A DNA stretch of 39,685 nt, from assembly GCA_023666885.1 (NCBI GenBank), contig JAMPBB010000007.1:1-39685 (forward strand), written 5' to 3'. A program made the position numbers and the translations under genes. The notes below the pieces were generated by a model. The model searched no databases. It saw only the letters and a program-made list of their open reading frames with translations, and was not told the origin of the DNA. Below, piece after piece: positions 20,501-36,705 of the stretch. Numbering within the stretch: position 1 is the stretch's first letter; each line of letters opens with the position of its first letter. Source of the DNA: Muribaculaceae bacterium (GTDB lineage: Bacteria > Bacteroidota > Bacteroidia > Bacteroidales > Muribaculaceae).

Positions 20501-20610
20501 CACAGAACCTGTTTACCATAACCAGGTACTCAGGCGCCGACCCTGAAGGCCTCGGATATCCGTATGCACTCCCCCGTCAGTATACCTTCGGCATACAGTT
20601 CGGATTCTGA
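17551..20610 (+). CDS. SusC/RagA-family TonB-dependent outer-membrane transporter
   Basis: 1019 residues with signal peptide MKKQIFTAIMLFIIALAARA. A carboxypeptidase-regulatory-like domain (about 24-95) is followed by a TonB-box-like DEVVVVGY, the plug domain (about 115-230, including LQGRVAGMTV, SIRGASSF, PLYVIDGV and DAASASIYGAQAANGVIIITTK) and a 22-strand-type barrel ending in QYTFGIQFGF. SusC proteins form the barrel under a SusD lid and import oligosaccharides using TonB energy. The neighbouring SusD gene, two GH32 enzymes and the HTCS point to fructan oligosaccharides. The gene starts 159 bases after the HTCS stop and 46 bases before susD. Confidence 0.96.
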   Translation: MKKQIFTAIMLFIIALAARAENITVHGTVISAADSEPLIGASVVSADKGSIGVATNFDGEFTITVPSGTELIVSYVGYKTKKVKAAPELTIMLEEASEMLDEVVVVGYSSEKKSDLTGSVSVVKMKDVADTPTGNVIQSLQGRVAGMTVTTDGTPGGLSTGTSIRGASSFRSDANGPLYVIDGVMTRENPGTILNSNDVESIQVLKDAASASIYGAQAANGVIIITTKRAKAGEARVTFDATLTMQTYNSGLNLLDAYEWGNVYWSAYKYAHNGATPSSAIYGNGATANLQTYKNLNGMDVLPQTTDWEKEIHRTALMQTYSIGLSKGADNGSSSLSLSWLDHDGIVKGSDFQRVNTRFSSDYGFLNNRLRAGGNMSVNWWKAHYMPDGAEENAVKQHPAKAVYDVSGMYVDQINDILGDAPNMMRLIQNNQANKHEYWRMFGNAYLQIEPIKRLIVKTNFGVNYYNETNKTFEPKWLRDDVNKLNQSTAKNVDWVWTNTAQYNIDLGVHSIMALAGVESKKYHNESFFGYGTGLEIEDPNYLYLGNVTSNKNVGAGASNYSMFSGFGKLNYTYDNKYLLSFTIRRDASSRLSKEHNYDWFPSISAGWRISQEKFMESTRSWLTDLKIRGSWGINGNDLIDNEAFYAKYLMSLDRGSYNMNGDGTTLAPGAYRIRTTNPELKWEKTYQTNVGIDAGLMNNRLTLSLDYFYKKTKDMLVEKPYIATIGEGGYCWYNGGEMTNHGFEGQINWRTAVNKDFSYEVGFNFTVSKNKVTDLLDDIYYSYGGGYAGHSLVGQALGSWMGFKTDGVFHTQAEVDEYRSKYQVEFGDPAVGRIKYVDTDGDGKINYNDRTWLGCDLPKAQFGLNLSGTWKGFDMNMFFSAIIRDAFNNSKYYTDLFQCWNGNHGKSLLEAANAYDEFLKTGVYNCDTPAPTTNNSNNEHEVSEFHIENGSFLRMKTLTVGYSLPQSLRTKLKMSNARIYFQAQNLFTITRYSGADPEGLGYPYALPRQYTFGIQFGF

Positions 20611-20656
20611 ACATAACATATAAGACACATCCACTACCTATAAATATAGAAAAACG

Positions 20657-22420
20657 ATGAAACTACATAATATATTCCTTGCCCTTACATGTGCTGCCAC
20701 TCTTACGGCTTGCAGCGATGACTTCCTTGAAAACAAACCGCAAGGCAGCCTGTCGGACGGCGTAATGACTTCAACTGAGGCTATTGACCTGCTGGTAAAC
20801 TCAGCTTACGCCTCACTTTCAGGATTCACAAATGAGCAAGGCGACCCGTGGGTACGTCCTACATCCAACTGGAGCTTCGGCGAAGTCCGTGCTGACAATG
20901 CCTATAAAGGTGGAGGCGGCGAAGGTGACCTGTGGGACATACACGCTATGGAAACATTCCAAGTACAGTCAAACAACGGCAATCTTGACGGCAAATGGTT
21001 CAATCTGTACAGCCAGATTTCACGCTGCAATGCCGCTCTGCGCGTACTTGAGACGGCCGATGAAAGCACCGTCAAGGTAAAGGCCTCACGAATAGCCGAA
21101 ATGAAAGTGCTCCGCTCTCATTTCTACTTTGAGCTGGTACGCCTGTTCAATAAGGTTCCTTACATGGATGAGAATCTGCCCGAGACGGAATATGTAAATG
21201 TGCCTAACGATGAGTTTACACGTGATGAACACTTAGGCCGTATAGCCGCTGAACTGCTTGATGCTGCACAGTCACTCCCCGAACGACAGAGTGAAGTAGG
21301 CCGTATAAACCGTAACATAGCGCTGGCATACGCCGCCAAAGTAAAACTCTATCAGGCATACGAGCAGGATGAACAGACTCATGCAGTGACAAACATCAAC
21401 AAGCAGCTTCTCCGCGAGGTGGTGTCACTAATAGATCAGATAAACGGCTATGATCTGCTACCGGATTTCCAGGGCCTTGACCTTGTAGCCAACGAAAATG
21501 GAGTGGAATCAGTATGGGCTATACAATACTCTATGAATGACGGCTCTGGCGATGCCGGACGTGTAAACTGGAGCAATCTGCTCAACTCTCCCGCCGGAAA
21601 CAGCCCCTACCACGGCGATGGATTCTTCCTGCCCTCACAGGATCTGATCAACGCATATCAAACGGATGAAAACGGTCTGCCCGTGTTTGACTACCAGTCA
21701 CGTCCTGACTATGCCACGGTAGAGTTCATAGATGACGAACACCAGCGGCTTAGCAATACCGAACCTACGGTAGATCCGCGCCTTGACTTCGTGGTAGGCC
21801 GCCCCACCATCACATACAAGACATACAAGGCCACTCCCTGCCAGTCATGGGTACGTGACCGGGGTGTATACGGACATAACTGTGCAAAACGTTTCTGGGT
21901 ATCGCCCGAGTCATCTGACATGTATCAGGGTTGGCCGTGGGGCGCATCACAGCTCAACTGGCAGATAATCCGATATGCCGACCTCCTTCTTTACAAAGCT
22001 GAAGCCCTCATAGAGATAGGGGAAGACCTTGATGAGGCACGCAACATAATAAACCGTATACGCACCCGCGCCATGAACAGCGCCTATGTAAAGGACTTCA
22101 ATAATCCTGCGGCAGATGCAGCCAACTATAAAATAGGCCTGTACCCTGCATCAGGATGGACACAGGACTACGCACGTAAAGCTCTGCGCACAGAAATGCG
22201 CCTTGAAAAAGCTCTTGAGGGTGAACGTTACTTCGACCTTGTTCGCTGGGGTATAGCCAAACAGGTGATGACAGCCTACTTCAATGTCGAGAAGGACAAG
22301 CGTATCTATTATCAGAACTCAACGTATTCTGACGGCGAAGAATATTTCCCCATACCTGTGGCCCAATACAATTTCTCATTAGGCCGATACACACAGAATC
22401 CCGGCTATCCGGCATTCTGA
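20657..22420 (+). CDS. SusD/RagB-family outer-membrane lipoprotein
   Basis: 587 residues. The lipobox LTAC (Cys19) is followed by SDDFLEN, an acidic stretch consistent with the Bacteroidetes lipoprotein surface-export signal. The N-terminal part has the SusD-type helices (AALRVLE, FYFELVRLFNKVPYMDE), and the C-terminal end has the usual ALRTEMRLEKALEGERYFDLVRWG and PIPVAQYNFS...QNPGY. SusD proteins are the surface lid that binds glycan over SusC. Its ligand is inferred to be fructan. A hairpin with a T-run lies 54 bases beyond the stop codon. No separate surface-binding lipoprotein such as BT1761 follows it. Confidence 0.96.
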   Translation: MKLHNIFLALTCAATLTACSDDFLENKPQGSLSDGVMTSTEAIDLLVNSAYASLSGFTNEQGDPWVRPTSNWSFGEVRADNAYKGGGGEGDLWDIHAMETFQVQSNNGNLDGKWFNLYSQISRCNAALRVLETADESTVKVKASRIAEMKVLRSHFYFELVRLFNKVPYMDENLPETEYVNVPNDEFTRDEHLGRIAAELLDAAQSLPERQSEVGRINRNIALAYAAKVKLYQAYEQDEQTHAVTNINKQLLREVVSLIDQINGYDLLPDFQGLDLVANENGVESVWAIQYSMNDGSGDAGRVNWSNLLNSPAGNSPYHGDGFFLPSQDLINAYQTDENGLPVFDYQSRPDYATVEFIDDEHQRLSNTEPTVDPRLDFVVGRPTITYKTYKATPCQSWVRDRGVYGHNCAKRFWVSPESSDMYQGWPWGASQLNWQIIRYADLLLYKAEALIEIGEDLDEARNIINRIRTRAMNSAYVKDFNNPAADAANYKIGLYPASGWTQDYARKALRTEMRLEKALEGERYFDLVRWGIAKQVMTAYFNVEKDKRIYYQNSTYSDGEEYFPIPVAQYNFSLGRYTQNPGYPAF

Positions 22421-22473
22421 TATGATGACAATAGGGATAGTTAGTACTAAGGTTAAAAAGATAGGTTGAAATC

Positions 22474-22517
22474 AATGGGGAGCCGTGACTGATTCTTATG
22501 GCTCCCCATTTTCTTAA
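22474..22517 (+). terminator. Intrinsic terminator/attenuator between susD and the second GH32
   Basis: A perfect 11-base-pair stem AATGGGGAGCC (22474-22484) / GGCTCCCCATT (22500-22510) with a 15-base loop, followed by TTCTTAATT. It ends 14 bases before the GH32 ATG at 22531, so it must be read through, at least in part, for that gene to be made from the susCD transcript. No other promoter was seen in the gap. Confidence 0.75.
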
Positions 22518-22530
22518 TTACACACCAATA

Positions 22531-23991
22531 ATGAAAAGAATCATAACATCCATACTGCTTACGCTAAACGTAGTTGTGATAGCGAAGCCCAATGATACTA
22601 CTCTTTACCGGGAGCAATACCGCCCGCAGTACCATTTTACTCCGGCCCACCGCTGGATAGGCGACCCCTGCGGGTTAGTTCACCATAACGGACGGTTCAT
22701 GGCCTATAGCTGGGGCGGATATGAATCCGCTGACCTCATCCACTGGACCGAGCTGAACGACCATGCCATACACGGTGTGCCGAAAGGAATATCTACATTT
22801 ACCGGAAGTGTGGTAGTGGACCGTAATAATACCGCCGGATTCGGCAATGACGCTTATATAGCAGCCTTCACATCGTTCGATGAGGCAAGTAAGAAACAGT
22901 CACAGTCCATAGCATTCAGTCATAACAGCGGACATGACTATCAGTATTATGACCTGAATCCGGTCCTTGACATATGGAGCACTGAATTTCGCGATCCCAC
23001 CGTAATCTGGCATGAGCCTTCAAAGCAGTGGATTATGCTTGTGGCCAGGGCGCTTGAAAAGAAAGTGGCTTTTTACGGTTCACAGGACTTGAAGCAGTGG
23101 AAGTGGCTGAGCGATTTCGGCCCTGCCGGTGACAGCGAAAAATCATGGGAATGTCCCGATATGTTTATGCTGCCCGTTGACGGCAATGCCGAAAATAAGA
23201 AATGGGTACTCGTAGTATCAGTTAACTGGGATAGGGAACAGTACTTTACCGGTGAGTTTGACGGCACCGGCTTCATATGCGATTCACCGGACAGCGCTCC
23301 ACAATACATTGATCATGGCATTGACTATTACGCATCAAGAGTATTTCAGGATTATGACGGTACGCTACCTGACACATATAGCATAGGGTGGGTATCAAAA
23401 TGGGATTATGCCGGTCAAGTGCCTACAAAATATGGCAAAGGTGTATGGTCATTACCCCGTGTATTGTCACTGAAAAGTACTCCTGACGGACTGCGGTTAG
23501 TACAGCAGCCGTACGGCGGATTGAAGAATCTGAGGGGTACGCCTTTTACTTACAATATAAAGCTCAATCCAGGGGTGACACCGCTAAAGGAATTGTCCAA
23601 ACTTGACAATGTATATGAGATTGATGCCACATTCACTACAGCCGTCGATAACACTGTCGGATTCATACTGTGCGAGGGTAAGGATTGCAAAGTGACGTTG
23701 AGCTATGACACCGCTTCAGGTACATTGATTCTGGACCGGACATATGCCACACAGGAGGACATTCCCAAGTTCGACCGTGTAGCCCACACTCATGTAAAGC
23801 CGTCAAACGGAGAAATAAATTTTAATATCTTTGTGGATAAGTCAGTGATAGAGATATATGCCGGCAATGGCGATGCCGTACTTACAGCCCTGACATTTCC
23901 GGATACAGAAGCTGTAATTGTAGAGGCATTTGCTCTCAGAAAAGGTACGGAAATGTCACTTAAAGTGTATCCTATGCAGTCAGTCCACTGA
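22531..23991 (+). CDS. Glycoside hydrolase family 32, variant nucleophile motif
   Basis: Starts at the ATG at 22531 (MKRIITSILLTLNVVVIAKP, a short signal peptide without lipobox); the in-frame ATG at 22498 lies in the terminator stem. About 486 residues. Catalytic groups are kept: WIGDPCG with Asp45, EFRDP with Asp155, and WECPD with Glu207. The nucleophile motif departs from the usual WMNDPNG, and about 13 residues of the loop that normally follows (YYQWNPYGSKWQN in the sister enzyme) are missing, giving SWGGYESADLIHW. The C-terminal sandwich includes NIFVDKSVIEIYAGNGDA. It probably attacks a different fructan linkage or chain length. Its end overlaps the convergent DUF1893 gene by 20 bases. 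Confidence 0.93.
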   Translation: MKRIITSILLTLNVVVIAKPNDTTLYREQYRPQYHFTPAHRWIGDPCGLVHHNGRFMAYSWGGYESADLIHWTELNDHAIHGVPKGISTFTGSVVVDRNNTAGFGNDAYIAAFTSFDEASKKQSQSIAFSHNSGHDYQYYDLNPVLDIWSTEFRDPTVIWHEPSKQWIMLVARALEKKVAFYGSQDLKQWKWLSDFGPAGDSEKSWECPDMFMLPVDGNAENKKWVLVVSVNWDREQYFTGEFDGTGFICDSPDSAPQYIDHGIDYYASRVFQDYDGTLPDTYSIGWVSKWDYAGQVPTKYGKGVWSLPRVLSLKSTPDGLRLVQQPYGGLKNLRGTPFTYNIKLNPGVTPLKELSKLDNVYEIDATFTTAVDNTVGFILCEGKDCKVTLSYDTASGTLILDRTYATQEDIPKFDRVAHTHVKPSNGEINFNIFVDKSVIEIYAGNGDAVLTALTFPDTEAVIVEAFALRKGTEMSLKVYPMQSVH

Positions 23992-24397
23992 TAAATCCGG
24001 CTATGAGAGGAATACACTCTTCTGCCGAGGTACACTCCGCGCACAGTTTCTCCACCGGACATATGCCTGTACCCATACGGTTTATAATATTGGGCACACA
24101 AATGCCATAACTCACTTTTACGTCCGAGCCTGCAAAGAGTGACATTGCAGGCTCACTTATTATATCGGCATAAACCCCTCTTATACCTCCGGCTATCATC
24201 AGGGCGGCGGCTCCTTTGCCCACCACCTTGTCAGCCACCAATGCGCCTGAAAGCATGCAAGGTTCCCGCTTAAGAAGCATATACAGGTCCTTGACGCCAC
24301 GCTGATAAAAGCTTGTAAAGGCATCATTATTATATATTACGCATGAGCAGCCGCTTTCATGCAGCATGGCTACAGCTCTTTCAAGATTATTGTCCAT
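23972..24397 (-). CDS. DUF1893 domain protein, last gene of the efflux/two-component operon
   Basis: 141 residues covering the whole DUF1893 family: LERAVAMLHESGCSCVIYNND, KGVKDLYMLL-like, VVGKGAAALMIAGGIRGVYADIISEPA and YGICVPNIINRMGTGICPVEKL. A structural representative from Thermotoga (TM1506) has a cytidine-deaminase-like fold without a metal site; function is unknown. Here the C-terminal part holds four cysteines as C-x5-C-x2-C-x5-C (CPVEKLCAECTSAEEC), which could bind a metal or form disulfides. The gene begins inside the end of the histidine-kinase gene (11-base overlap), so it is translated with the two-component system and may modulate it. Its 3' end overlaps GH32 by 20 bases. Confidence 0.9.
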   Translation of the reverse strand: MDNNLERAVAMLHESGCSCVIYNNDAFTSFYQRGVKDLYMLLKREPCMLSGALVADKVVGKGAAALMIAGGIRGVYADIISEPAMSLFAGSDVKVSYGICVPNIINRMGTGICPVEKLCAECTSAEECIPLIAGFISGLTA

Positions 24398-25703
24398 AAT
24401 GAGGAAATGTAATGGTAAAACGTGTCAGCCTGTCGGCAGCCGAAGTGTACAGGCTGAACCTGCATCCATGGCTGCGCAATATATCCCGGACCGACATAAG
24501 ACCAAGCCCCTGCCCGGCAGGCTTGTCAGTATAGAACGGCGTAAAGAGTTTTTTCTGCTTCTCAGGCGTAATACCGGTTCCGCTGTCCGTTACGGTTACA
24601 GTGACTGTTCCGTCATCATTTTCTGCTGCGGAAACGATTATCGGGTCATAGGATTCCGCCGCCGACATACTTTCAGCAGCATTCTTCACCGTATTGACCA
24701 TCACTTGCTCGAAGAGTATGGCATCAAGCATAACCTTAGACAGATTATCAGGAATATCAAAAAACACGGGGACAGACTCAGCCGATGCCACACTCTGTAT
24801 GAAATGATCAGCCCTATCAAAGAATACATGTAAGTCCGTAGGGGTCAGTACGGGCACCGGAATCTTTGCCACTGATGCATAACGTGACACAAAATCGCTC
24901 AGATTACGAGCCCTGTCAGAGCAAGCGCGAAGCACATCCGTAACATCACGGTCAGGCAGCATGGACATCAACGTATCCATAGCCGATACAAGGCCGCCCA
25001 CCGTATTGTTTACCTCATGTGACATAACCCGGATAACCTTTTCATACCCCTGCCGCTCTGATTCTATAACCGTATCAGTGATATTATGCAGTATATAGAA
25101 CCTGTATGGCACTCCTGCATTGATAAAACCATGACACGAGCACCTCACTACAGCATTGTCGCCACCACCACTGCGGTATGACACCACCTCACCCGGATGC
25201 AGGGTCAGGAGCTGTGCGGCCATTGGCGAGTCTATATCGGACAATGTCCCCACAGTGGCTATGGCTTTCCCCATAAAAGAGTCGGCAGAGGGGTTGGACA
25301 TCACTATGACCCCGTACGGGTCAGTGACAATTACTCCGGAGTCAATATTCTCAATAAGGAGATGCAGCATATGGCCCTGCTCCTCATATCGGATGCGCTG
25401 TGCCTTCAGCCTTTCAAGCATAAAGTTAAACGTATCCACTATGTCATCCACCTCCTTATGCCCTACACGGCGCAGCGTACTGTTCCAATCCTGTGCCCGA
25501 AGCATATCAATACCTCCGGACAGAGTATTGATAGGAGCCATAACCTTACGATAGAATACTATAAGATATATCAACGTCACGGCCAGTCCGGCTTCAATAA
25601 TATAAAACCATAATGTGTCCCTGAGCGCCACTATAAAGAACAGTGCCACCCATATACCTACTATCAGAATGGCAAATATCAGGAAGAAACAGCGCAGCCT
25701 CAT
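24387..25703 (-). CDS. Sensor histidine kinase, NtrB/NtrY-like, PAS-containing
   Basis: 438 residues. Two adjacent membrane helices (about 4-27 and 31-51) are joined by only a few residues, so there is no periplasmic sensor domain. They are followed by a HAMP-like region (52-105), a PAS domain (about 112-210, NIDSGVIVTDPYGVIVMSNP), the H-box VMSHEVNNTVGG (His229) and the ATPase with N-box (VMVNTVKNAAESM), DSGTGI and GQGLGL. The kinase should phosphorylate the NtrC-type regulator encoded just upstream (four-base overlap). The signal is likely sensed in the membrane or the cytoplasm. I see no sign of a metal or drug-binding site. Confidence 0.94.
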   Translation of the reverse strand: MRLRCFFLIFAILIVGIWVALFFIVALRDTLWFYIIEAGLAVTLIYLIVFYRKVMAPINTLSGGIDMLRAQDWNSTLRRVGHKEVDDIVDTFNFMLERLKAQRIRYEEQGHMLHLLIENIDSGVIVTDPYGVIVMSNPSADSFMGKAIATVGTLSDIDSPMAAQLLTLHPGEVVSYRSGGGDNAVVRCSCHGFINAGVPYRFYILHNITDTVIESERQGYEKVIRVMSHEVNNTVGGLVSAMDTLMSMLPDRDVTDVLRACSDRARNLSDFVSRYASVAKIPVPVLTPTDLHVFFDRADHFIQSVASAESVPVFFDIPDNLSKVMLDAILFEQVMVNTVKNAAESMSAAESYDPIIVSAAENDDGTVTVTVTDSGTGITPEKQKKLFTPFYTDKPAGQGLGLMSVRDILRSHGCRFSLYTSAADRLTRFTITFPHYGQ

Positions 25704-27025
25704 ATGTCTATACCAAACTTTTCAATACGCCGATACAGGGCTCCACGGCTGATGCCGAGCTCACGCGCGGCACGGCTCACATTGCCACGATGCTTGTCAA
25801 GCACCTCCCGTATACGAGCTTCCTCTATCTCATCCAGGCTGCGTAGAGGCGTATCGGGCGCCATGACGGCACTGTTTATCATACCGCGCACGTCAGCTTC
25901 CGAGAGTTCCTGTCCGGTAGCTATAAGAGCCGTCCGCTCCATCATGTTCTTGAGCTCACGTATATTCCCGGGATAGTTATGTGACATCAGGAAACGAATG
26001 GCACTATCACCCAATCGGGGCACGGGCAGGTCATTAGCCCTGCATGACTCCGCAAGGAAATGCTCGGCCAGCAGACGTATATCATGACCCCGTTCACGAA
26101 GCGGAGGCAAGTCCACATTTACCACACATATCCTGTAGTACAGATCCTCGCGAAAACGTTTTTCAGCCACCAATCGGCGCAAATCAGCATTCGTGGCGCA
26201 TACCACACGCACATCTACCTTGCGCGGGCGGTTGGATCCAAGCGGCTCGAAAGTATGCTCCTGAAGTACACGCAGAAGTTTTACCTGACAGGCAATGTCA
26301 AGCTCCCCTATCTCATCAAGGAATATAGTTCCGCCATTGGCGGCCTCAAAACGCCCCACACGGTCAGATACGGCGCCTGTAAATGCACCCTTCTTATAGC
26401 CGAACATCTCGCTCTCGAACAGTGCAGCCGGTATACCACCGAGATTTACCTTTATAAACGGGGCGTCACGCCGCTTACTGTTACGGTGTATGGCCTCCGC
26501 TATAAGTTCCTTGCCGGTACCGCTCTCACCGGTTATAAGCACAGGAGCTGAAGTAGGTGCCACACGCTTTACTATGTCAAGCACCTCAGACAACGCTCCG
26601 TCACGTCCTATGATATTGCCACGGTCAAAGGACCCCGTGGCATCATCCTCTGTCCTGACATTGACCTTAAGAGCGTTTGCTATTGACTCAAGCACATGGG
26701 CATTGTCCCACGGTTTTGTTATAAAATCAAATGCTCCCGCTCTCATCCCCCTCACAGCAAGGTCTATACTGCCCCATGCCGTAATCAGTATCACCGGTAC
26801 CTCAGGTAGAAAGAGTTTTATCTGGCGCAGAAGCGTCAGGCCGTCGTCACCTGTAGTTGACATCCCGAAATTCATGTCGAGCAGTACGGCCTCCGGCACA
26901 GCTGCCCGCACCGTCTGCATGGCTTCATCAGGCGAGGCTGCACACGTGCACACATATCCGTCCCGTTTCAGCAACAGTGAGAGCGAGGAGCGCACTATGG
27001 AGTCATCATCAACTATCAGTATCAT
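25700..27025 (-). CDS. Sigma-54-dependent response regulator, NtrC family
   Basis: 441 residues with the three standard domains. Receiver: acidic pocket DDD (6-8), phosphoacceptor Asp50 and Lys104. AAA+ domain: Walker A GESGTGKE (166-173), sigma-54-contacting loop GAFTGA (213-218) and FLDEIGELD. Fis-type helix-turn-helix at the C terminus ([26 protein letters not shown]). The intact GAFTGA loop means it can activate sigma-54 promoters, and a near-consensus sigma-54 promoter lies at the head of this operon (33081-33095). So it very likely activates its own efflux operon. The gene follows the TolC gene by 17 bases and overlaps the kinase gene by four. Confidence 0.96.
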
Positions 27026-27042
27026 ATTACCCTACAAAAATA

Positions 27043-28518
27043 CTAATTTCTTATGATTTCTTCAAAGTCAGCCTCAATAGGCCGGCGCCCCGTGAAGTCC
27101 CATAGCGTAATGCTGCGGAGCTGATAATAGTAATACCAGTAATAGAACAGCTCATTAAGGTATCGCACCCGGGCGGAGTCCTTCACCGTCTGTGAGTCGT
27201 TAAGGTCAAGTGCCGAGATACGTCCGGTAAGGAACGTAGCCACACTGCTGTCATAACGCCTCCCGGCCACGGAATCGGCACGTGCTGACAGCGCCAACTG
27301 TCCGCGCTGATTGTTAAACTTCTCTACAAGGATAAACAGGTTCTGACTGAAATCGGCCTGTTCCTTGCGCAGTATGCTTTTTGTAAGCTCTCTGTTGCTC
27401 TCAGCCACTTTGACACGACCACGGCGTTTGCCCCAGTCAACCAAAGGAAGCGATATACCCACCTCCATCACCTGATTGTCCTTAAGCCTGGAGTAGGCCG
27501 CAGGGAAGTCCGTATCAGTCCCCGTAAGGCCCACCTGGGCAAACAGTTTGAAGTCACGTAGATTCCCCTTAGCCTTAGCCACCTCATAGTCAGCCTCAAG
27601 CTGGCGGCGGCGTATGTTAAGTGAAAAGGAGTTATGTGCCAATGCATGCTCCAGAGCATCGGCAAATACCACATCACTTACGTCCAGCTCCTGAGGCTGT
27701 ACAGGTTCGATATCTATATTCTCAGGAAAGTCAAGAAATGCACACAGCCTGAACATGGAGCCTTTCATGTCACTTTCACTTTCGGTAAGAGCCGAGCGTG
27801 AATTGAGCAGGTTCAGCTCTATCTGCATGAGGTCATTTTCACTTATGCGCCCCATGGCCCGCTTGGCACAAGCCACTTCGTAGAGCTTCTCGGCATTCCG
27901 CAGATTCACCTCTGCCGACATCCGGCTTTCACGGGCCGCAAGCAAGTTGAAAAAATATTGTATGGCTGTCATGGCCACTTCTTCCGTAGCACTTATATAG
28001 GCCGCCTTGGCTTCCTCATATCTTACCGGCTCTATGCGTCTGTTCCATTTCACATCATTAACGCCGAACAATGGCTGCGTAAGCCTCAAGGCCACGGGGA
28101 CACTCATAAAACGGTTTGACTTGCTGCCGCTAAGCTGCCTCAAGTAGTCAAGTGATGAGGTCAGCGACAGGGTACCGCCAGTAAGCCATATGCGCTGCTC
28201 TACCGCCAAGGCTCCTGACAGCATGATATTATCATCACGAATAAACGTGTATGCTCCGTCAGACTGCTGATAACTGTTGAACCGCTTGTTATATGACGGA
28301 AATGTCGCAGTCAGTTTCACCTCGGGAAGGAGGTCGGCACGATATGAGCGGTATTCCCAGTATGCGCTGCGCAGCTCATTGACAGCCACTGCCGCATCCA
28401 CGCTACGGCTCCGCGCCCTTGCCACGGCAGCATCAAGCGTAAGTGACAGCACCTCGGCTTTCAGTGTCAGCGACATCAGCAACGCTATACCCGTCAGTAT
28501 CTTACGGCATATCATCAT
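27043..28518 (-). CDS. TolC-family outer-membrane efflux channel
   Basis: 491 residues with a signal peptide (to about residue 21, SLTLKAEV). Two OEP repeats with long helical stretches (for example RESRMSAEVNLRNAEKLYEVACAKRAMGRISENDLMQIELNLLNSRSALTESE) and the LRDFKLFAQVGLTGTDTDFP / VGISLPLVDWGKRRGRVKVAESN segments are the usual marks of TolC-like proteins. As a trimer it would form the channel through the outer membrane and periplasm for the adaptor and ABC transporter encoded upstream. The C-terminal tail (YWYYYYQLRSITLWDFTGRRPIEADFEEII) contains an unusual Tyr/Trp cluster. It overlaps the ATPase gene by four bases. Confidence 0.95.
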   Translation of the reverse strand: MMICRKILTGIALLMSLTLKAEVLSLTLDAAVARARSRSVDAAVAVNELRSAYWEYRSYRADLLPEVKLTATFPSYNKRFNSYQQSDGAYTFIRDDNIMLSGALAVEQRIWLTGGTLSLTSSLDYLRQLSGSKSNRFMSVPVALRLTQPLFGVNDVKWNRRIEPVRYEEAKAAYISATEEVAMTAIQYFFNLLAARESRMSAEVNLRNAEKLYEVACAKRAMGRISENDLMQIELNLLNSRSALTESESDMKGSMFRLCAFLDFPENIDIEPVQPQELDVSDVVFADALEHALAHNSFSLNIRRRQLEADYEVAKAKGNLRDFKLFAQVGLTGTDTDFPAAYSRLKDNQVMEVGISLPLVDWGKRRGRVKVAESNRELTKSILRKEQADFSQNLFILVEKFNNQRGQLALSARADSVAGRRYDSSVATFLTGRISALDLNDSQTVKDSARVRYLNELFYYWYYYYQLRSITLWDFTGRRPIEADFEEIIRN

Positions 28519-29186
28519 AGCACTCTGCGTCCGTCAAAGAAATGGGCCGTGCGGTCAGTATCATTGGCCTGACTCTCATTATGGGTAACCATTATCACCG
28601 TCCGGCCGCTGTTCTTGTTCAGATCATGAAGAATATCCATTATCTCACCGCTCATTTTTGAGTCAAGATTACCGCACGGCTCATCGGCAAGAATTATCTT
28701 GGGGTTGCCCACAATGGCACGTGCTATGGCCACACGCTGAGCCTGTCCGCCTGAAAGCTGTGAGGGCATATGCGTCATCCTGTGGCTCAGCCCTACACGC
28801 TCAAGCGCTTCACGAGCCAGCCGTGATTTATTACCCGCCTTATGTCTGTACATAAGAGGCACCATCACATTGTCAAGCACATTAAGGGTATTAATCAGAT
28901 GAAAGCTCTGGAATATGAAGCCAAGAGTTTCATTACGCAGCGCAGCCAGAGCCTTGTCACGCATCCCGGCCACATCGGTACCACACAGTTCCACCTTACC
29001 TGATGTAGGGGCATCAAGCAGCCCCATTATATTCAGCAGTGTGGACTTTCCACATCCTGACGGGCCCATTATGCTCAGAAACTCGCCCTCATTGACTTCA
29101 AGGTTTACATTCTCAAGAGCTCGGGTTTCTATGGTTTTGGTACGGTATATTTTATTTATCTCGCTCAGTTTTATTATAGTAGACAT
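28515..29186 (-). CDS. ABC transporter ATP-binding protein, MacB/LolD type
   Basis: 223 residues, a complete nucleotide-binding domain. Walker A is GPSGCGKST, the Q-loop region FIFQSFHLINTLNVLDNVMVPL, the signature LSGGQAQRVAIARAI, Walker B IILADEPCGNLDS (Cys where most relatives have Thr) and the H-loop VMVTHNES. This size and sequence type belong to ATPases that drive FtsX/MacB permeases, which act as mechanotransmitters rather than as channels. It lies between the permease and TolC genes, with a 31-base gap from the former. The whole set resembles MacAB-TolC, split so that the permease and ATPase are separate proteins. Confidence 0.96.
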   Translation of the reverse strand: MSTIIKLSEINKIYRTKTIETRALENVNLEVNEGEFLSIMGPSGCGKSTLLNIMGLLDAPTSGKVELCGTDVAGMRDKALAALRNETLGFIFQSFHLINTLNVLDNVMVPLMYRHKAGNKSRLAREALERVGLSHRMTHMPSQLSGGQAQRVAIARAIVGNPKIILADEPCGNLDSKMSGEIMDILHDLNKNSGRTVIMVTHNESQANDTDRTAHFFDGRRVL

Positions 29187-29217
29187 GATATGATTATTTT
29201 TTTAGTAAATGAGTTGA

Positions 29218-30534
29218 TTATTCATCGCGCAGTGCATCTACCGGGTTTATACGGCTAAGGTTACGTGCCGGCAGATACGTACCTGCAAGTACGGCAGCAA
29301 GAAGTATCACGTATGATACGGCCACAAGAATAAGGAAATGTGGCCAAAATGCCGCCACCCAATTATGGGACATATTGATTGATATAAAACTGCTTGTGCC
29401 TTTTGACAGCCCGAATTTCAGCCCCCACTGCAAGAACAGGAAAACGCCTATAAGGAAACCTGCGGTAAGAAGCACGGCACTTTCTGACATGAGCATGGTC
29501 AAAATATTGCCACGGGTGGCTCCGTATGACCGGAGTACACCTACTTCACGTATACGCTTCCGGGTCTGTAGCCACATAGTACTTACCGTGCCGAATATCA
29601 GATTCAGAATAAAGAACAATGCCAATAACTGAGTCACCTTCAGCTTGGAGCCGTCAGATGATTGATAGGCTGTTTCATCAAGGATACTGCTATAACTCTT
29701 GATACCTGACAAATAAATATTGGCATCGGCAAGACTACGCCTTATTTCAACGAAATTCCGCCCTGAAAATTCATCCGCATCAGTATCAGCCGTAAGTCGG
29801 ATCAATATATAGAAGCCATATTCACTTGGCACGTATTCTCTGCTATTGGTGAAATAAAGTGCACCGGTATTGAACGTATTACGGTATTTTACATTCTCTA
29901 CCACTCCTACCACCGGACACCATACGGTATCGCCATCCTCGGTAGTTTCACTAACGAAACGTTTACCTACGGCATTCTGCCCCGGCCAATATAAGTCGGC
30001 CACCTCATGTGTTATAATCACTCCGTTACCAAGAGGATTGGCTGACAGCTCTTCAACAGCCGGACTGCCTTCTGCCGCATTTATTCCATACGTTTCAAAG
30101 AATTCAGTTCCCGGCAGAAACTCCACATTGAGTGTGCCGTAGCTTATGGTATCTATAGCCGGATTACCGCTTCTAAGTTCAGAAGATGAGAGTGATCCAC
30201 TGTTTATATAAATATTCGGAAGATAAGATACACGCTCCACACCGGGCATATTCTTAATCTTGGCAATAATCCTGTGCAATGCAGCCTCCTTGACATCGGC
30301 TGAATCGTTTTCGGCCTTATAGAGATCCGATGACTTCGGATACATATCAAACTCCATAATAACAAGGCGGTCAGCATCATATCCTAACGGCTGGCGTACC
30401 ACATGAGTCATCACTATGGCCGGATCCAACAGGAAACAGAGCAGGAACGTCACTATTATCAACTCGGCAAACAGCCAGCCATTGGCCTTACGGCGGTGCC
30501 ACAAATTCTTTAATATCATCATAGCATTAATCAT
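29218..30534 (-). CDS. ABC transporter permease, FtsX/MacB-type (second)
   Basis: 438 residues. One N-terminal helix (about 20-42), a large periplasmic domain (to about 300) and three C-terminal helices (about 300-325, 350-375, 395-420). The FtsX motif is visible as REVGVLRSYGATRGNILTMLMSESAVLL, and the protein ends with RINPVDALRDE, the usual MacB-type tail. It overlaps the other permease gene by eight bases, and the two probably form a heterodimer that works with the ATPase encoded next. Relatives move peptides, antibiotics, siderophores or lipoproteins from the periplasm; the cargo here is unknown. Confidence 0.93.
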   Translation of the reverse strand: MINAMMILKNLWHRRKANGWLFAELIIVTFLLCFLLDPAIVMTHVVRQPLGYDADRLVIMEFDMYPKSSDLYKAENDSADVKEAALHRIIAKIKNMPGVERVSYLPNIYINSGSLSSSELRSGNPAIDTISYGTLNVEFLPGTEFFETYGINAAEGSPAVEELSANPLGNGVIITHEVADLYWPGQNAVGKRFVSETTEDGDTVWCPVVGVVENVKYRNTFNTGALYFTNSREYVPSEYGFYILIRLTADTDADEFSGRNFVEIRRSLADANIYLSGIKSYSSILDETAYQSSDGSKLKVTQLLALFFILNLIFGTVSTMWLQTRKRIREVGVLRSYGATRGNILTMLMSESAVLLTAGFLIGVFLFLQWGLKFGLSKGTSSFISINMSHNWVAAFWPHFLILVAVSYVILLAAVLAGTYLPARNLSRINPVDALRDE

Positions 30535-31801
30535 GAAGTGATTGGACTATAGGATGGCGCAGAGCGTTCCACGCCGGAATCAGCGCCGACAGCATATTAA
30601 GTATCAAACACACGCAGAACATTATCACAAATACACCGGGCGAAAACAGCATGTCAGGCGTAATGTTAAGCCCTGTAGCCGTGGCGTAATAGAGCTGCAA
30701 TATATCGCCATATAGGGCATTGCCGCCAAAGTATAATACGGACCATGCTATGGCGAGTGCGCAAACCCCGCCTATCAACGTAAGCAGCAGATTCTCCCAC
30801 AAAACCTGACTGAGCAACCGGCCGCGAGTAGCGCCAAAGGATTTACGTATACCTATCTCCTGCTGACGCATCTCCATACGTCCGGTTATCATGCCGCTCA
30901 GGTTCAGAGCCGGGACTAACAGGAACGCAAGGCCTCCGGGCAGAATGGCTATAAGGATATAGCTCCAGCTGAAGCCTGACTGGTAAACATTATTCTTAAG
31001 CACTGATACGGCATGAATCTCCGGCTGGTCAAAAAAATGGACATCCTTATCAGGATTAGCCGCCGAAAGGCGCTGTCCTATATCCGTAAGTTCACGCTTC
31101 AGCGCATCGATATCATCAGTTATCATGACCAATTTTAGCGGACCTGTATAACTTGCTGATTCCACAAATGATTTATCTACAGTATATGGGATAAGCGCGT
31201 CGGCAAAAGAGTATTTATGTACAGCACTTCCGGGCCTGTATACACCGCATATCATATAATCGGTAAACTCAAGGCTTACGGTACGCCCTACAGCATTGTC
31301 ATCAGGCCCGAACAGAAGCTTCGCAAGATTAGAGCTTATGGCAATACTGTGGATACCGCTTTCGAAATCTGACTGACTGAAGGGGACGCCCTGAACAAAC
31401 TCCAAGTCAAATACTTTGAAAAACTCAGGATCGGTAAACTTGACTCCTACCTTGATGTCACGGCCTTCGGTATCGAATGCTGACATTTCACGCATATTAG
31501 TCTGCGCCGAGCTGTATGCCGCATTCTTCATATGCCGCAGATGCTGCTCTATAAGCGAATATGACAGGGATCCTTGACTCCAGTTGTCATAACTGTCCTT
31601 TGCAGTGGTGACTACTGTGGATATATAGGCTATCATGTCACGCTTATGCTCAGGATACATAGGCGCTATCTGCACATATATAAGCACATAATATAGCATA
31701 CTAAGCGCAAGTGCCATAGACGTGCCGACTATATAGATGGATGAGAACAGCGGATTCTGCACCATCATATGCCAGGCTTGTTTGAAATAAACTTTAATCA
31801 T
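30527..31801 (-). CDS. ABC transporter permease, FtsX/MacB-type (first)
   Basis: 424 residues with the same plan as the neighbouring permease: helix near residues 15-40, periplasmic domain to about 275, then three helices. The FtsX motif is EIGIRKSFGATRGRLLSQVLWENLLL and the tail is RHPIVQSLHD, lacking the DALR of its partner. The two share the fold but are clearly different in sequence, as expected of a heterodimer. Its stop overlaps the start of the second permease by eight bases and its start overlaps the adaptor stop by four. Confidence 0.93.
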   Translation of the reverse strand: MIKVYFKQAWHMMVQNPLFSSIYIVGTSMALALSMLYYVLIYVQIAPMYPEHKRDMIAYISTVVTTAKDSYDNWSQGSLSYSLIEQHLRHMKNAAYSSAQTNMREMSAFDTEGRDIKVGVKFTDPEFFKVFDLEFVQGVPFSQSDFESGIHSIAISSNLAKLLFGPDDNAVGRTVSLEFTDYMICGVYRPGSAVHKYSFADALIPYTVDKSFVESASYTGPLKLVMITDDIDALKRELTDIGQRLSAANPDKDVHFFDQPEIHAVSVLKNNVYQSGFSWSYILIAILPGGLAFLLVPALNLSGMITGRMEMRQQEIGIRKSFGATRGRLLSQVLWENLLLTLIGGVCALAIAWSVLYFGGNALYGDILQLYYATATGLNITPDMLFSPGVFVIMFCVCLILNMLSALIPAWNALRHPIVQSLHD

Positions 31802-33048
31802 TTGATTATCTTAATTATATTTGAATTGCTGAATGCATGCATATCATTGAGTACCACTCTTTCGCCGGGACTCACTCCGGATATTACCTCCACATGATCG
31901 TATCCCGATGCTCCAAGCTTAACTGACCGGCGCTCTATTTCACCCCGTCCATTATCTACATACAGTTCATATGAGCCTGCTCCGTTATATCCTGACGGGA
32001 TAGGTATACGGGTAACGCCGCTCTTCAGCCCATTGGATATATACACGTCAGGCTTTAATCCCGCGCGCAGAACCTCAGAGCTGTCACAGTCTATAGTGGC
32101 CGTAAAGCTGTACATTCCCGAGCGTGACGTGGGAGCTATATCACGTACCGTTCCTTCAAACTCCTCACGTGCCACCTTAAAGCTTATCCGGCATCCCGGA
32201 CGCACGTCGCGGCCTCGGCTGTCGGCCACTTCTCCCTCTATTCTGTAGTGGGCCAGGTCAGCTATCACAGCCACTTGCTGCCCGGCGCTGATCTGCGAGC
32301 CTATCTCATTTACTATTGATGTCACTGTGGCATGCCGTGGCACTAAGATCTCAGCATCGCCAAGCAGCCGGGAGGTCAGGGCAAGGTCTTTACTCTTAAT
32401 CTCTATATCTAACCGTGCCATACTTACATCCGCTTCCATGGCACGCCGTTCATTAGCCAGCTGCTGTTTGAGCTGCTCAAGCTCCAATACAGCCGAACGT
32501 CGTGCAAACTCCACCTCCCGGACCTGATCAGCCGTACCGCCGCCGATACTGTCAAGATACCTCTCGTTGGCAAGCTGCATGTTAAGACGGTTCAGATTCA
32601 TTTCCGACACTTTGATACGCATCTCCATATCATGGAGCTTGGTATTATTGTTTGCCTGAAGTTTTTCAAGTGAGAGCCGCATTCTGGACAGTTCATCACA
32701 CTGCTTTTCATAGTCAGTACGTGTGGCATCCAAATCCAGGCGCATAAGTGGACTCCCCTTCTTGACCATATCGCCGGGATGGCGGTACACCTCCAGAATC
32801 CGGGTTGACACCGGTGAGCTTATTATCTCTTCCATTGACGGGACTATATGTCCGGTAGCATTAATAGCCACTTCAATGTCGCCCCTGTCGGCAGTACCCA
32901 TTGACAGATCCTTTTCATTAATTCCGGTTCGGGAAAAATACCATATGCCCCATATGGCAAACCCTATAATGAGCACTGCTATGGCAATCCTCAGCATCTT
33001 TTTCCGTTTTATCCTGAAGCGTTCTGCGGCTGTAAGAGTTCTATCCAT
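31798..33048 (-). CDS. Periplasmic adaptor (membrane-fusion) protein, HlyD/MacA-like
   Basis: 416 residues, first gene of the operon. A single N-terminal membrane helix (about 19-39, IAIAVLIIGFAIWGIWYF) anchors it. A split biotinyl-lipoyl domain is seen (IISSPVSTRILEVYRHPGDMVKKGSPLMRLD and ILVPRHATVTSIVNEIGSQISAGQQVAVIAD) around a long coiled-coil hairpin (about 110-230, with many Leu and Arg/Glu), then a beta-barrel domain and a membrane-proximal domain (SGYDHVEVISGVSPGERVVLND). It would bridge the ABC permeases and the TolC channel. A sigma-54 promoter lies 33 bases upstream. Confidence 0.95.
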   Translation of the reverse strand: MDRTLTAAERFRIKRKKMLRIAIAVLIIGFAIWGIWYFSRTGINEKDLSMGTADRGDIEVAINATGHIVPSMEEIISSPVSTRILEVYRHPGDMVKKGSPLMRLDLDATRTDYEKQCDELSRMRLSLEKLQANNNTKLHDMEMRIKVSEMNLNRLNMQLANERYLDSIGGGTADQVREVEFARRSAVLELEQLKQQLANERRAMEADVSMARLDIEIKSKDLALTSRLLGDAEILVPRHATVTSIVNEIGSQISAGQQVAVIADLAHYRIEGEVADSRGRDVRPGCRISFKVAREEFEGTVRDIAPTSRSGMYSFTATIDCDSSEVLRAGLKPDVYISNGLKSGVTRIPIPSGYNGAGSYELYVDNGRGEIERRSVKLGASGYDHVEVISGVSPGERVVLNDMHAFSNSNIIKIIK

Positions 33049-33080
33049 ATACTGTTATCTGTTATCGCCCAACATATAAT

Positions 33081-33095
33081 ACAATAGTCGTGCCA
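33081..33095 (-). promoter_or_regulatory. Sigma-54 promoter of the efflux operon
   Basis: On the minus strand TGGCAC (33090-33095), five bases, TTGT (33081-33084): the -24 and -12 elements with the required ten bases between GG and GT. The consensus is TGGCAC-N5-TTGC, so only the last base differs. Start of transcription would be near 33069, about 20 bases before the adaptor ATG. The operon itself encodes a regulator with an intact GAFTGA loop. Confidence 0.85.
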
Positions 33096-33128
33096 CAACA
33101 ATAACTCATTAGCTAACAAACAGATGCC

Positions 33129-33156
33129 AAAATGGTTGGTGTCCATTTTCGGACAC
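33129..33156. promoter_or_regulatory. Two overlapping palindromes, candidate activator site upstream of the sigma-54 promoter
   Basis: GTGTCC (33139-33144), six bases, GGACAC (33151-33156), overlapped by AAAATGG (33129-33135), seven bases, CCATTTT (33143-33149). Both are perfect. They lie about 35-60 bases upstream of the -24 element, where enhancer-binding proteins bind. They also lie just after the dinB stop, but no T-run follows on the minus strand, so a terminator is less likely. Confidence 0.6.
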
Positions 33157-34608: not shown

Positions 34609-36705
34609 ATGTACAATATTTCTGACCTGAACGCTATGTCCGATGAACAGCTTAAAGGCATAGCCGAACAAATGGGTATGAAACGTATCGACTCTATGGA
34701 TAAGGACTCGATAGTATATGCCATACTTGACCAACAGGCCATTGACGCGGCAGCCTCAGGCGCCGGAACCAACAAGAAGCGCAAACAACCTAAGGAACCG
34801 CGCCCCAAGAAAGAAAAAGCTCCAAAAACTACCAATAATTCAACTGATGCCGCGAAACCGGTAATATCTGAAAACGAATCGGCCACCGCTGAAGCTCCCG
34901 CGCCAAAACGCCGCGGACGCAAATCAAAAGCTCAGATAGCAGCTGAGGAAGCTGCGAAAAAAGCAGTCAATTCCGGCAATGAACAGCAGGAACTACCTTT
35001 AGATCAGATAGCTGCCCCCGAGAGTCAGACACCGGCGGAAGAACCTGCCGTATCGGCTCCAACACAAAAACGCCGTGGACGCAAGTCAAAAGCTCAGATA
35101 GCGGCTGAAGAGGCTGCCCGCAAATCTGCTACTGAGGGTACCGACACTCAAACTCCTGCACCTGCCGATACTAATCCGAATACTAAAGCGGAAGCACCGG
35201 CAGAACAAAACGAATCCAACAATACTGAAACAACGGCTACCGCTGCATCATCTGACACCGCTACAGACGTAGAGCCACGTGATAACAATGACAGGCAGAA
35301 CCAGCCTAAGCGTGACTTCAAGCCTAAAGATACATCGCTCGGCTCATTCTTCCCCCGCTCTGAAGGCCGACGCTTTGTTCCCAGATCTCAGCGTGAAAAA
35401 GAGGAAGCCGCTGCCGCAGCAGCCATAGCCGCCGCTACCGCACCGATAGTGATAGCCGAACCATGGCAAATGGAGAAACAGCAGCAACAGCAGCAAAAAA
35501 ACCGCAACAAGAAGAACCGCAACAACAACAATAATAATAACAACAATAATCAGCAGCAGCGCCAATATCAAGAGGCCCCATATGACTTCAATGGACTCAT
35601 ATCCACATCGGGCGTGCTGGAAATAATACCTGACGGCTACGGATTCCTGCGGTCAAGCGACTACAACTATCTGTCATCGCCTGACGATGTCTACGTTACA
35701 CAAGCTCAGATAAAACAATACGGACTTAAAGCCGGAGATGTAGTGGAGGCTTCCATACGTCCGCCCCGTGAAGGCGAGAAGTATTTCCCCATGAGCAAGG
35801 TGCTGAGCGTCAACGGCCGCTCACCGGAATATATCCGTGACCGCGTTCCGTTCGAGCACCTCACACCGCTGTTCCCCGATGAAAAATTTGACATAACATC
35901 AGGCCGTTCCGGAAATCTGTCAACCCGCGTGGTAGATATGTTCTCCCCCATAGGCAAGGGACAGCGCGGTCTTATCGTGGCTCCGCCCAAAACCGGTAAG
36001 ACCATCCTACTTAAAGACATTGCCAATGCCATAGCTGAGAATCATCCTGAGACGTATATAATGATTCTGCTCATTGATGAACGTCCGGAAGAGGTGACCG
36101 ACATGAGCCGCAGCGTAAACGCCGAGGTGATAGCATCTACATTCGACGAGCCGGCGGACCGCCATGTCAAAATAGCCGGTATGGTGCTTGAAAAAGCCAA
36201 ACGCCTGGTAGAGTGCGGTCATGACGTAGTGATACTGCTTGACTCCATAACCCGCCTGGCGCGTGCATACAACACCGTATCGCCCGCTTCGGGCAAGATT
36301 CTGTCAGGCGGTGTGGATGCCAATGCCCTACAGAAGCCCAAACGTTTCTTCGGTGCAGCCCGCAACATAGAAAACGGAGGTTCGCTCACCATAATAGCCA
36401 CAGCCCTGACCGAAACAAGCTCAAAGATGGATGAAGTGATATTTGAGGAGTTCAAGGGCACGGGCAACATGGAGCTTCAGCTTGACCGCAAGCTTTCCAA
36501 CAAGCGAATATTCCCGGCAGTGGATATCATGGCTTCATCTACGCGCCGCGATGACTTGCTGCTGCGTGAGGAAACGCTTAACCGCATGTGGATTCTGCGC
36601 CGATTCCTTTCGGACCGTAACAGCATAGAAGCTATGGAATTCATAAAGGACCGTATGGAGCGCACCTCAAGCAATGATGAGCTGCTCCGCACCATGGGCG
36701 ACTAA
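34609..36705 (+). CDS. rho: Transcription termination factor Rho with disordered Q/N-rich insertion
   Basis: 698 residues, far longer than the 419 of E. coli Rho. Order: Rho_N helical region (about 1-45), disordered insertion (about 48-322), RNA-binding cold-shock domain (from 326, [24 protein letters not shown]), ATPase with Walker A APPKTGKT (Lys464), [13 protein letters not shown], the Q-loop/R-loop region ([25 protein letters not shown]) and [18 protein letters not shown]. The insertion holds a duplicated basic segment ([17 protein letters not shown] at 100 and 154), an alanine run, six Q and ten N in a row. A similar insertion in B. thetaiotaomicron Rho has been reported to drive phase separation needed for gut fitness. 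rho ends at an intrinsic terminator. Confidence 0.98.
34906..35124 (+). repeat. In-frame duplication in the Rho insertion
   Basis: Two copies of a 51-base-plus unit encoding [17 protein letters not shown] at 34906-34962 and 35068-35124, offset 162 bases. They differ mostly at third positions, so the duplication is old and the protein sequence is being conserved. Confidence 0.85.

What the first reader, a model, noticed from the sequence alone, without database searches (positions are those of the whole stretch)
23972..33156. Efflux operon that encodes its own sigma-54 activator
Seen: TGGCAC-N5-TTGT at 33081-33095, with the correct ten-base GG/GT spacing, about 33 bases before the first gene, plus a perfect GTGTCC-N6-GGACAC upstream. 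Known: the only sigma-54 activator in this window (25700-27025) has an intact GAFTGA loop and is encoded within the same operon. Inference: a positive feedback loop in which a membrane or cytoplasmic signal switches on adaptor, two permeases, ATPase, TolC channel, regulator and kinase together. Bacteroidetes use of sigma-54 is little studied.
Basis: partly seen in the sequence, partly recalled or inferred. Interest (0 to 1): 0.7.

Follow-up and report, generated by a model that had tools for sequence, protein, structure and literature searches.

The report
Self-activating sigma-54 export pump operon
A Bacteroidales genome carries an operon for a pump, predicted to export unknown compounds, with a sigma-54-type promoter sequence and a paired DNA site that relatives keep at the same spacing, so the operon is likely switched on by the regulator it encodes; in one related lineage that regulator lacks its sigma-54 domain and the promoter sequence is of another type.

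Summary
The -24/-12 box (33095..33081, - strand) and the palindrome (33156..33139) precede a tightly packed MacB-type tripartite ABC exporter operon that also encodes an NtrC-type response regulator and a kinase with almost no outer loop. Of 167 distinct homologous upstream regions (window included), 145 have the box at fixed spacing from TGTCCGN4CGGACA (142 at 59-62 nt, 3 at 77-82), against 0 of 167 for the reversed sequences; an IHF-like box lies between. Of 81 operons whose regulator gene is in hand, 69 encode the full regulator: 65 have this arrangement and 2 a weaker box. The other 12 encode a short regulator without the sigma-54 AAA+ domain: 12 of 12 keep the palindrome, 0 of 12 have the box there, 12 of 12 have TTGAC there and a TAnnTTTG-like box beyond. 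They form one clade among sigma-54 operons: one natural domain-deletion event. This ties regulator, site and promoter together and supports autoactivation. Transcription, RpoN dependence, binding and signal were not tested. Sigma-54 control of FtsX-type permeases in Bacteroidia was predicted in print (PMC12316311); my searches found neither this operator nor the switch.

The parts
33139..33156 (-). Palindrome GTGTCC-N6-GGACAC (family consensus TGTCCGN4CGGACA), likely binding site of the operon's regulator
   Evidence: conserved at fixed spacing in relatives
33102..33114 (-). IHF-like position (WATCARNNNNTTR in relatives); degenerate here, AA and TTA kept
   Evidence: column frequencies; coordinates; the IHF consensus is recalled
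33081..33095 (-). -24/-12 sigma-54-type promoter TGGCAC-N5-TTGT
   Evidence: conserved in relatives
31798..33048 (-). HlyD/RND-type periplasmic adaptor, first gene
   Evidence: TIGR01730 over cut-off
30527..31801 (-). MacB_PCD + FtsX permease A
   Evidence: 5xu1, MacB chains
29218..30534 (-). FtsX permease B
28515..29186 (-). ABC ATPase of the LolD/MacB type
27043..28518 (-). TolC-family outer membrane channel (OEP)
25700..27025 (-). NtrC-type response regulator: receiver, sigma-54 AAA+ with GAFTGA, Fis HTH
24387..25703 (-). Histidine kinase: two hydrophobic segments with short loop, HAMP (just under its cut-off), H-box SHEVNN by eye, HATPase_c
23972..24397 (-). DUF1893 (TM1506) gene overlapping the kinase end; likely co-transcribed but not found next to the relatives

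Best explanation
This is a tripartite MacB-type ABC exporter operon whose sigma-54-type promoter is likely activated by the NtrC-type regulator encoded near the operon's own end. Predicted sequence of events: (1) the kinase, which has almost no outer domain, senses a membrane state or the working transporter; (2) it phosphorylates the regulator; (3) the regulator assembles on TGTCCGN4CGGACA about 78 bp before the start; (4) an IHF/HU-type protein bends the DNA between; (5) the AAA+ domain remodels RNA polymerase with sigma-54 at -24/-12; (6) exporter, regulator and kinase rise together. Shown here: the parts, gene order, conserved sites and spacings, and that the operons whose regulator lacks the AAA+ domain also lack the -24/-12 box but keep the palindrome. 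Inferred: every step of activity.
For: Conservation: 145 of 167 distinct upstream regions have the box at fixed spacing from the palindrome, 3 more a weaker box there, 2 a strong box 70-72 nt away; reversed sequences 0 of 167. Box alone on the other strand: 7 of 167 against 151 of 167. Compound pattern: 54 places in 51 of 247 genomes, reversed pattern 0. Covariation: 65 of 69 full-length regulators (+2 with a weaker box) go with the arrangement; of 12 short ones 0 have the box there, 12 the palindrome and TTGAC 52/53 nt after its start. One clade of 12 (support 1.0) inside a clade of 19 with 7 full-length ones (0.999). RpoN in this genome and in 233 of 247 family genomes. HU/IHF-family proteins present. 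Kinase: 42 of 43 kinase reading frames (350-520 aa) show at least two hydrophobic segments, the first two 2-16 residues apart.
Against: No expression or binding data. The covariation is one evolutionary event, not 12, and deeper branches of the tree are poorly supported. Two of 69 full-length regulators fail the promoter test: L035, whose promoter seems to lie before an extra first gene (pattern hit in G402, the same contig), and L183, box present but palindrome altered. The contact loop reads GAFTDA in 14 of 69, GSFTGA in 3, GAFTNA in 1; 4 missed my pattern (two GAYTGA, one GAYTDA, one masked). Eight related operons have no regulator in the DNA held, so 'encodes its own activator' is not universal. 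The window's IHF-like box is degenerate and the second upstream palindrome of many relatives is absent here (6 of 12 at that place). Stimulus and substrate are unknown.
Confidence: 0.85

Rival explanations
1. The palindrome is an intrinsic terminator of the upstream gene, and the operon is read by a housekeeping promoter or by read-through; the -24/-12 match is chance.
For: In 30 of the 73 named-record loci counted the palindrome is extended by at least 3 pairs and followed by a T-run, as in a terminator. The box alone is not beyond chance in this window.
Against: In 70 of the 89 unnamed-genome loci (window included) there is neither extension nor T-run. Sequence, not just pairing, is conserved, and the spacing to TGG is 60 or 61 nt in 128 of 146. 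The palindrome may double as a terminator in Bacteroides.
Confidence: 0.05
2. The regulator binds the site but works as a repressor, or the operon answers to another genomic sigma-54 activator.
For: Two other full-length sigma-54 activators exist in the genome. No direct activity data.
Against: Promoters of the -24/-12 type need an AAA+ activator (established knowledge). The linked regulator is the one that varies together with the promoter type.
Confidence: 0.08
3. The kinase senses a cytoplasmic signal through the PAS-like stretch between HAMP and H-box, independent of the transporter.
For: More than 100 residues lie between the HAMP match (ends at residue 100) and the H-box (His 229); PAS-like by eye only.
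Against: No PAS family scored at E 0.001. The near-absent outer loop recurs across homologues, as in intramembrane-sensing kinases.
Confidence: 0.35

Closest known systems
MacA-MacB-TolC type (type VII) ABC exporters; LolCDE; darobactin exporter DarBCD
   Same: Adaptor, FtsX/MacB_PCD permease, LolD/MacB-type ATPase, TolC channel; ATPase best NCBIfam match is DarD, adaptor also matches DarC
   Different: Separate ATPase and two different permeases; the MacB, LolD, LolE, DarC and DarD models are all below cut-off; linked NtrC-type regulator and kinase
ZraSR and other autoregulated NtrC-family systems
   Same: sigma-54 activator controlling its own operon (ZraR autoregulation stated in PMC12316311, passage seen)
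   Different: Regulator and kinase sit near the end of an exporter operon; palindrome TGTCCGN4CGGACA (zra sites not compared)
BceRS-BceAB flux-sensing modules
   Same: FtsX-type ABC transporter next to a kinase with two membrane segments and almost no outer loop (PMC10314905 passages)
   Different: Adaptor and TolC added, sigma-54 activator as the regulator; transporter-kinase contact not shown here
Predicted sigma-54 regulon of Bacteroidia, PMC12316311
   Same: Predicts sigma-54 promoters for COG0577 FtsX-type permeases, enriched in Bacteroidia (passages)
   Different: In the passages I saw: no operator, no linked activator, no spacing rule, no sigma-factor switch
PrrA/RegA/ActR-type short regulators (recalled)
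   Same: Receiver plus Fis-type HTH without AAA+ (resemblance to the 12 short regulators)
   Different: Here the short form groups with this exporter operon's own lineage and keeps its palindrome; no PrrA sequence was compared

Membership tests
sigma-54-dependent promoter | GG/G(C) dinucleotides at the right spacing, TGGCAC-N5-TTGC-like | tested here: met
   TGGCACGACTATTGT, 1 mismatch; conserved
sigma-54-dependent promoter | Transcription requires RpoN and an AAA+ activator | not testable with these tools
   RpoN gene present; dependence not measurable
NtrC-family bacterial enhancer-binding protein | Receiver, AAA+ with Walker A and GAFTGA, Fis HTH | tested here: met
   Pfam, motifs, PDB relatives 4l4u, 1ny5
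NtrC-family bacterial enhancer-binding protein | Conserved upstream palindromic enhancer | tested here: met
   Palindrome 60/61 nt from TGG in 128 of 146; binding itself not tested
MacAB-TolC-type tripartite ABC exporter | Adaptor, MacB_PCD/FtsX permease, MacB/LolD ATPase, TolC channel | tested here: met
MacAB-TolC-type tripartite ABC exporter | Fused ATPase-permease MacB equivalog | tested here: not met
   Separate genes; PRK10535 far below cut-off. Works like, not a member of, MacB proper
Bce-type flux-sensing module | Kinase with two membrane segments and minimal outer loop beside an FtsX-type ABC | tested here: met
   (hydropathy only)
Bce-type flux-sensing module | OmpR-type BceR regulator (type recalled) | tested here: not met
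   Regulator is NtrC-type
Bce-type flux-sensing module | Kinase-transporter complex | not tested
   No complex was modelled
PrrA/RegA-type short regulator (for the 12 relatives) | Receiver + Fis HTH, no AAA+ | tested here: met
   12 of 12 by BLAST against the window regulator's domains; 3 of 12 scanned by Pfam; origin is this family

The most novel reading that the evidence does not exclude
In one lineage the same exporter operon changed its sigma factor in place. Its activator dropped the AAA+ domain, the -24/-12 box was replaced by a housekeeping-type -33/-7 promoter, and the operator stayed at the same distance from the start. The short regulator would now activate the housekeeping polymerase directly, while the window's form shows the ancestral sigma-54 design, possibly driven by transporter flux sensing.
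Probability: 0.7. Interest if true: 0.78.

Novelty: new variant of a known kind. Interest (0 to 1): 0.65.

Why it matters
Sigma-54 and the housekeeping sigma family open promoters in unrelated ways, and how a promoter moves between them is, to my knowledge, poorly documented. These operons offer a before/after pair with the same operator and target genes, similar spacing, and a regulator that has or lacks the AAA+ motor. The set also gives Bacteroidales a concrete sigma-54 operator that can be tested in culturable strains, and a way to predict which exporters share one regulator.

Tried and rejected
Strict pattern GTGTCCN6GGACAC-N28..58-TGGCAYN5TTG over 295 Bacteroidales genomes found only the window. 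A looser one (TGTHCG..CGDACA) found 6 of 295 genomes, in f1 and four other family codes. The exact form is therefore not universal: homologues carry TTCG, TACG or other letters, and the sample, drawn evenly over the order, held few close relatives.

Loss of RpoN as the cause of the switch was rejected: of 9 genomes with only the short form, 8 have RpoN; the ninth, G522, is 76% complete.

A first motif scan placed some boxes wrongly (e.g. L219, L144) and was replaced by the position-bound test. Its 'weak' label for L159 came from a chance pair; one search shows a 9-of-10 box 72 nt from a perfect palindrome, and L192 likewise at 70 nt. I count these two apart.

Of 181 upstream regions, 14 with the same last 100 nt as another were dropped; the filter for starts under 60 nt from a contig end dropped none.

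PMC8895600 was searched for AAA+ loss; the passages held nothing relevant. Search listings 13, 14, 52, 53, 55, 64, 65, 66 and 71 showed no title or abstract start on this palindrome or on AAA+ loss in such regulators (open-licence PMC only).

No structure prediction was run.
Full report
OBSERVATION. The box TGGCAC-GACTA-TTGT (33095..33081, - strand) and the perfect palindrome GTGTCC-GAAAAT-GGACAC (33156..33139) are present as described. The adaptor gene starts at 33048. From adaptor to kinase the gene junctions overlap by 4-8 nt or leave gaps of 17-31 nt, so one transcript is likely. The upstream neighbour dinB ends at 33162 on the same strand. The box alone is not unusual in a window of this size. 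The palindrome is unique in the 2.17-Mb, 86%-complete genome.

WHAT THE OPERON ENCODES. HlyD/RND-type adaptor, two FtsX-type permeases (one with MacB_PCD), a LolD/MacB-type ATPase, a TolC-family channel, an NtrC-type response regulator with intact GAFTGA, and a histidine kinase. A DUF1893 gene overlaps the kinase end, but it was not found beside the relatives in the DNA held. The kinase shows two hydrophobic segments with a few residues between them. Of 43 kinase reading frames of 350-520 aa examined, 42 show at least two such segments, the first two 2-16 residues apart; one (L087) shows one. The genome has one RpoN, three full-length sigma-54 activators and one 39-position match at the cut-off, and four HU/IHF-family matches, two of them side by side.

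CONSERVATION. Relatives came from a scan of named genome contigs (80 loci kept of 271 that encode a relative) and from 247 genomes of the same family (113 with a match; 100 places fetched). Gene order HlyD, permeases, ATPase, TolC, regulator, kinase recurs, often with extra genes or another order of permeases and ATPase. Of 181 upstream regions, the window's included, 167 are distinct. With a simple score, 151 of 167 have a box on the coding strand and 7 of 167 on the other strand. Bound to position, 145 of 167 have a box of at least 8 of 10 at set distance from a palindrome of at least 9 of 12 (142 at 59-62 nt, 3 at 77-82), against 0 of 167 when the same regions are read backwards. Anchored on TGG in 146 loci, TGTCCGN4CGGACA starts 60 or 61 nt upstream in 128. 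Between the two lies WATCARNNNNTTR (C 80%, A 94%, T 91%, T 95% at its key columns), which matches the IHF consensus as I recall it. A second palindrome 18-23 nt further upstream (at least 8 of 12) occurs in 96 of 162, but not in the window (6 of 12 there).

OTHER PLACES. A pattern search over 247 family genomes gave 54 places in 51 genomes and none for the reversed pattern; the window is missed because its palindrome matches 11 of 12. By coordinates, 45 of the 54 lie before the adaptor operons (in G402 before an extra first gene). Of the other 9, I read 6: two precede permease operons with their own regulator (L266, L267), one a TolC-regulator-kinase operon (L270), one an ATPase (by eye) plus a 776-aa MacB/FtsX permease (L265), one a 773-aa outer-membrane barrel protein (L268), and one runs off the contig (L269). 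Regulators there are by BLAST, the two long proteins by Pfam, the rest by eye.

THE NATURAL EXPERIMENT. The regulator gene was in hand for 81 of 167 operons. Sixty-nine, the window included, encode receiver-AAA+-Fis proteins: 65 have the box at set distance from the palindrome, 2 a weaker box there (L176, L194) and 2 fail (L035, L183). Twelve encode 171-187-aa proteins that keep receiver and Fis helix-turn-helix and lack the AAA+ domain (3 of the 12 scanned by Pfam). None of the 12 has the box there; all 12 keep the palindrome, with TTGAC 52 or 53 nt after its start. A thirteenth locus, L222, has the same promoter; its regulator lies beyond the DNA held, and its genome has a short-form match on another contig. 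At +23 from TTGAC the 13 loci show TAnnTTTG exactly in 7 and end in TTTG in 12. This resembles the Bacteroidetes -33/-7 promoter (TTTG / TAnnTTTG; PMC7366714, passages). Among 154 other loci, 4 have a TTGAC 48-57 nt after a palindrome start (L036, L043, L152, L207; all four also score a sigma-54 box). From the two spacings the palindrome would start at about the same distance (about -86) from the start in both types; this is my estimate, not a measurement. Of the 86 operons with unseen regulator, 80 have the arrangement, 1 a weaker box (L101), 2 a strong box 70-72 nt from the palindrome (L159, L192), 1 palindromes without a box (L141), 1 a box with the upstream part cut by the contig end (L063), and 1 is L222.

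DIRECTION AND NUMBER OF EVENTS. A FastTree of HlyD+ATPase+TolC (81 operons, 1132 columns) puts the 12 short-regulator operons in one clade (support 1.0), inside a clade of 19 with 7 full-length ones (0.999); several deeper nodes are weak. A receiver+HTH tree also groups the 12 (0.993), but does not resolve their nearest relatives. So this is best read as one event, loss of the domain plus change of promoter, followed by spread over three genus codes (6, 4 and 3 loci with L222; from the handles, tallied). It counts as one covariation event, not twelve. Loss of RpoN does not explain it: 8 of the 9 genomes with only the short form have RpoN. Four genomes (G369, G297, G535, G453) hold both forms.

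TRANS CONTROL. Eight operons with box and palindrome (L157, L159, L163, L171, L177, L203, L218, L223; L159 at 72 nt spacing) have no regulator in the DNA I held, and each of their genomes has a full-length family regulator elsewhere, E at most 1.1e-135. In L195 and L211 the regulator is divergent.

MECHANISM. The best reading is NtrC-type autoactivation of an exporter operon: enhancer, bend, -24/-12. Basal regulator could come from read-through of dinB (inference). The kinase form recalls Bce modules, where transporter cycling is proposed to activate a kinase without a dedicated sensing domain (PMC10314905, passages); here that is a hypothesis.

NOVELTY. Sigma-54 control of FtsX-type ABC permeases in Bacteroidia was predicted in PMC12316311 (passages). 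Autoregulated NtrC-type systems are known. New here, as far as nine search listings show, are the conserved operator with fixed spacing, the linked activator, and the joint loss of AAA+ domain and -24/-12 box.

Noticed in passing
L205, L212, L214, L219, L222, L224, L225, L228, L230 upstream of the adaptor gene: In 9 of 13 short-type promoters the -7 box ends 4 nt before the predicted ATG, so the mRNA would be nearly leaderless, rare in B. thetaiotaomicron (about 3.7% of 5' UTRs under 10 nt, PMC7366714, passage).
   Followed up: partly
L157, L159, L163, L171, L177, L203, L218, L223: Exporter operons with box and palindrome but no linked regulator in the DNA held; a full-length family regulator lies elsewhere in each genome.
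   Followed up: partly
L268:5917-8238 (-): The compound promoter motif precedes a 773-aa outer-membrane beta-barrel protein with a CarboxypepD_reg domain, a possible extra regulon member.
   Followed up: partly
L141 upstream of the adaptor gene: Two palindromes but neither the -24/-12 box nor TTGAC at the expected place; regulator lost to the contig end. Possible second switch or intermediate.
   Followed up: no
L159, L192 upstream of the adaptor gene: Strong box and perfect palindrome 72 and 70 nt apart instead of 60/61, about one helical turn more.
   Followed up: no
L042, L053 and similar Bacteroides loci, upstream of the adaptor gene: The palindrome is extended and followed by a T-run, so it may double as a terminator of the gene before.
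   Followed up: partly
L028, L031, L035, L039, L042, L044, L048, L053, L056, L064, L072, L087, L184, L216: GAFTDA instead of GAFTGA in the sigma-54 contact loop of the regulator (14 of 69); all but L035 keep box and palindrome at the set spacing.
   Followed up: no
L035: Operon with two permease pairs (four permease-like reading frames) but one ATPase, adaptor and channel; longer operons recur.
   Followed up: no
window 17551-23991: Products that look like SusC, SusD and a glycoside hydrolase by eye, next to the operon; not examined further.
   Followed up: no
window 34609-36705: Rho-like terminator factor with a long low-complexity N-terminal part, by eye only.
   Followed up: no
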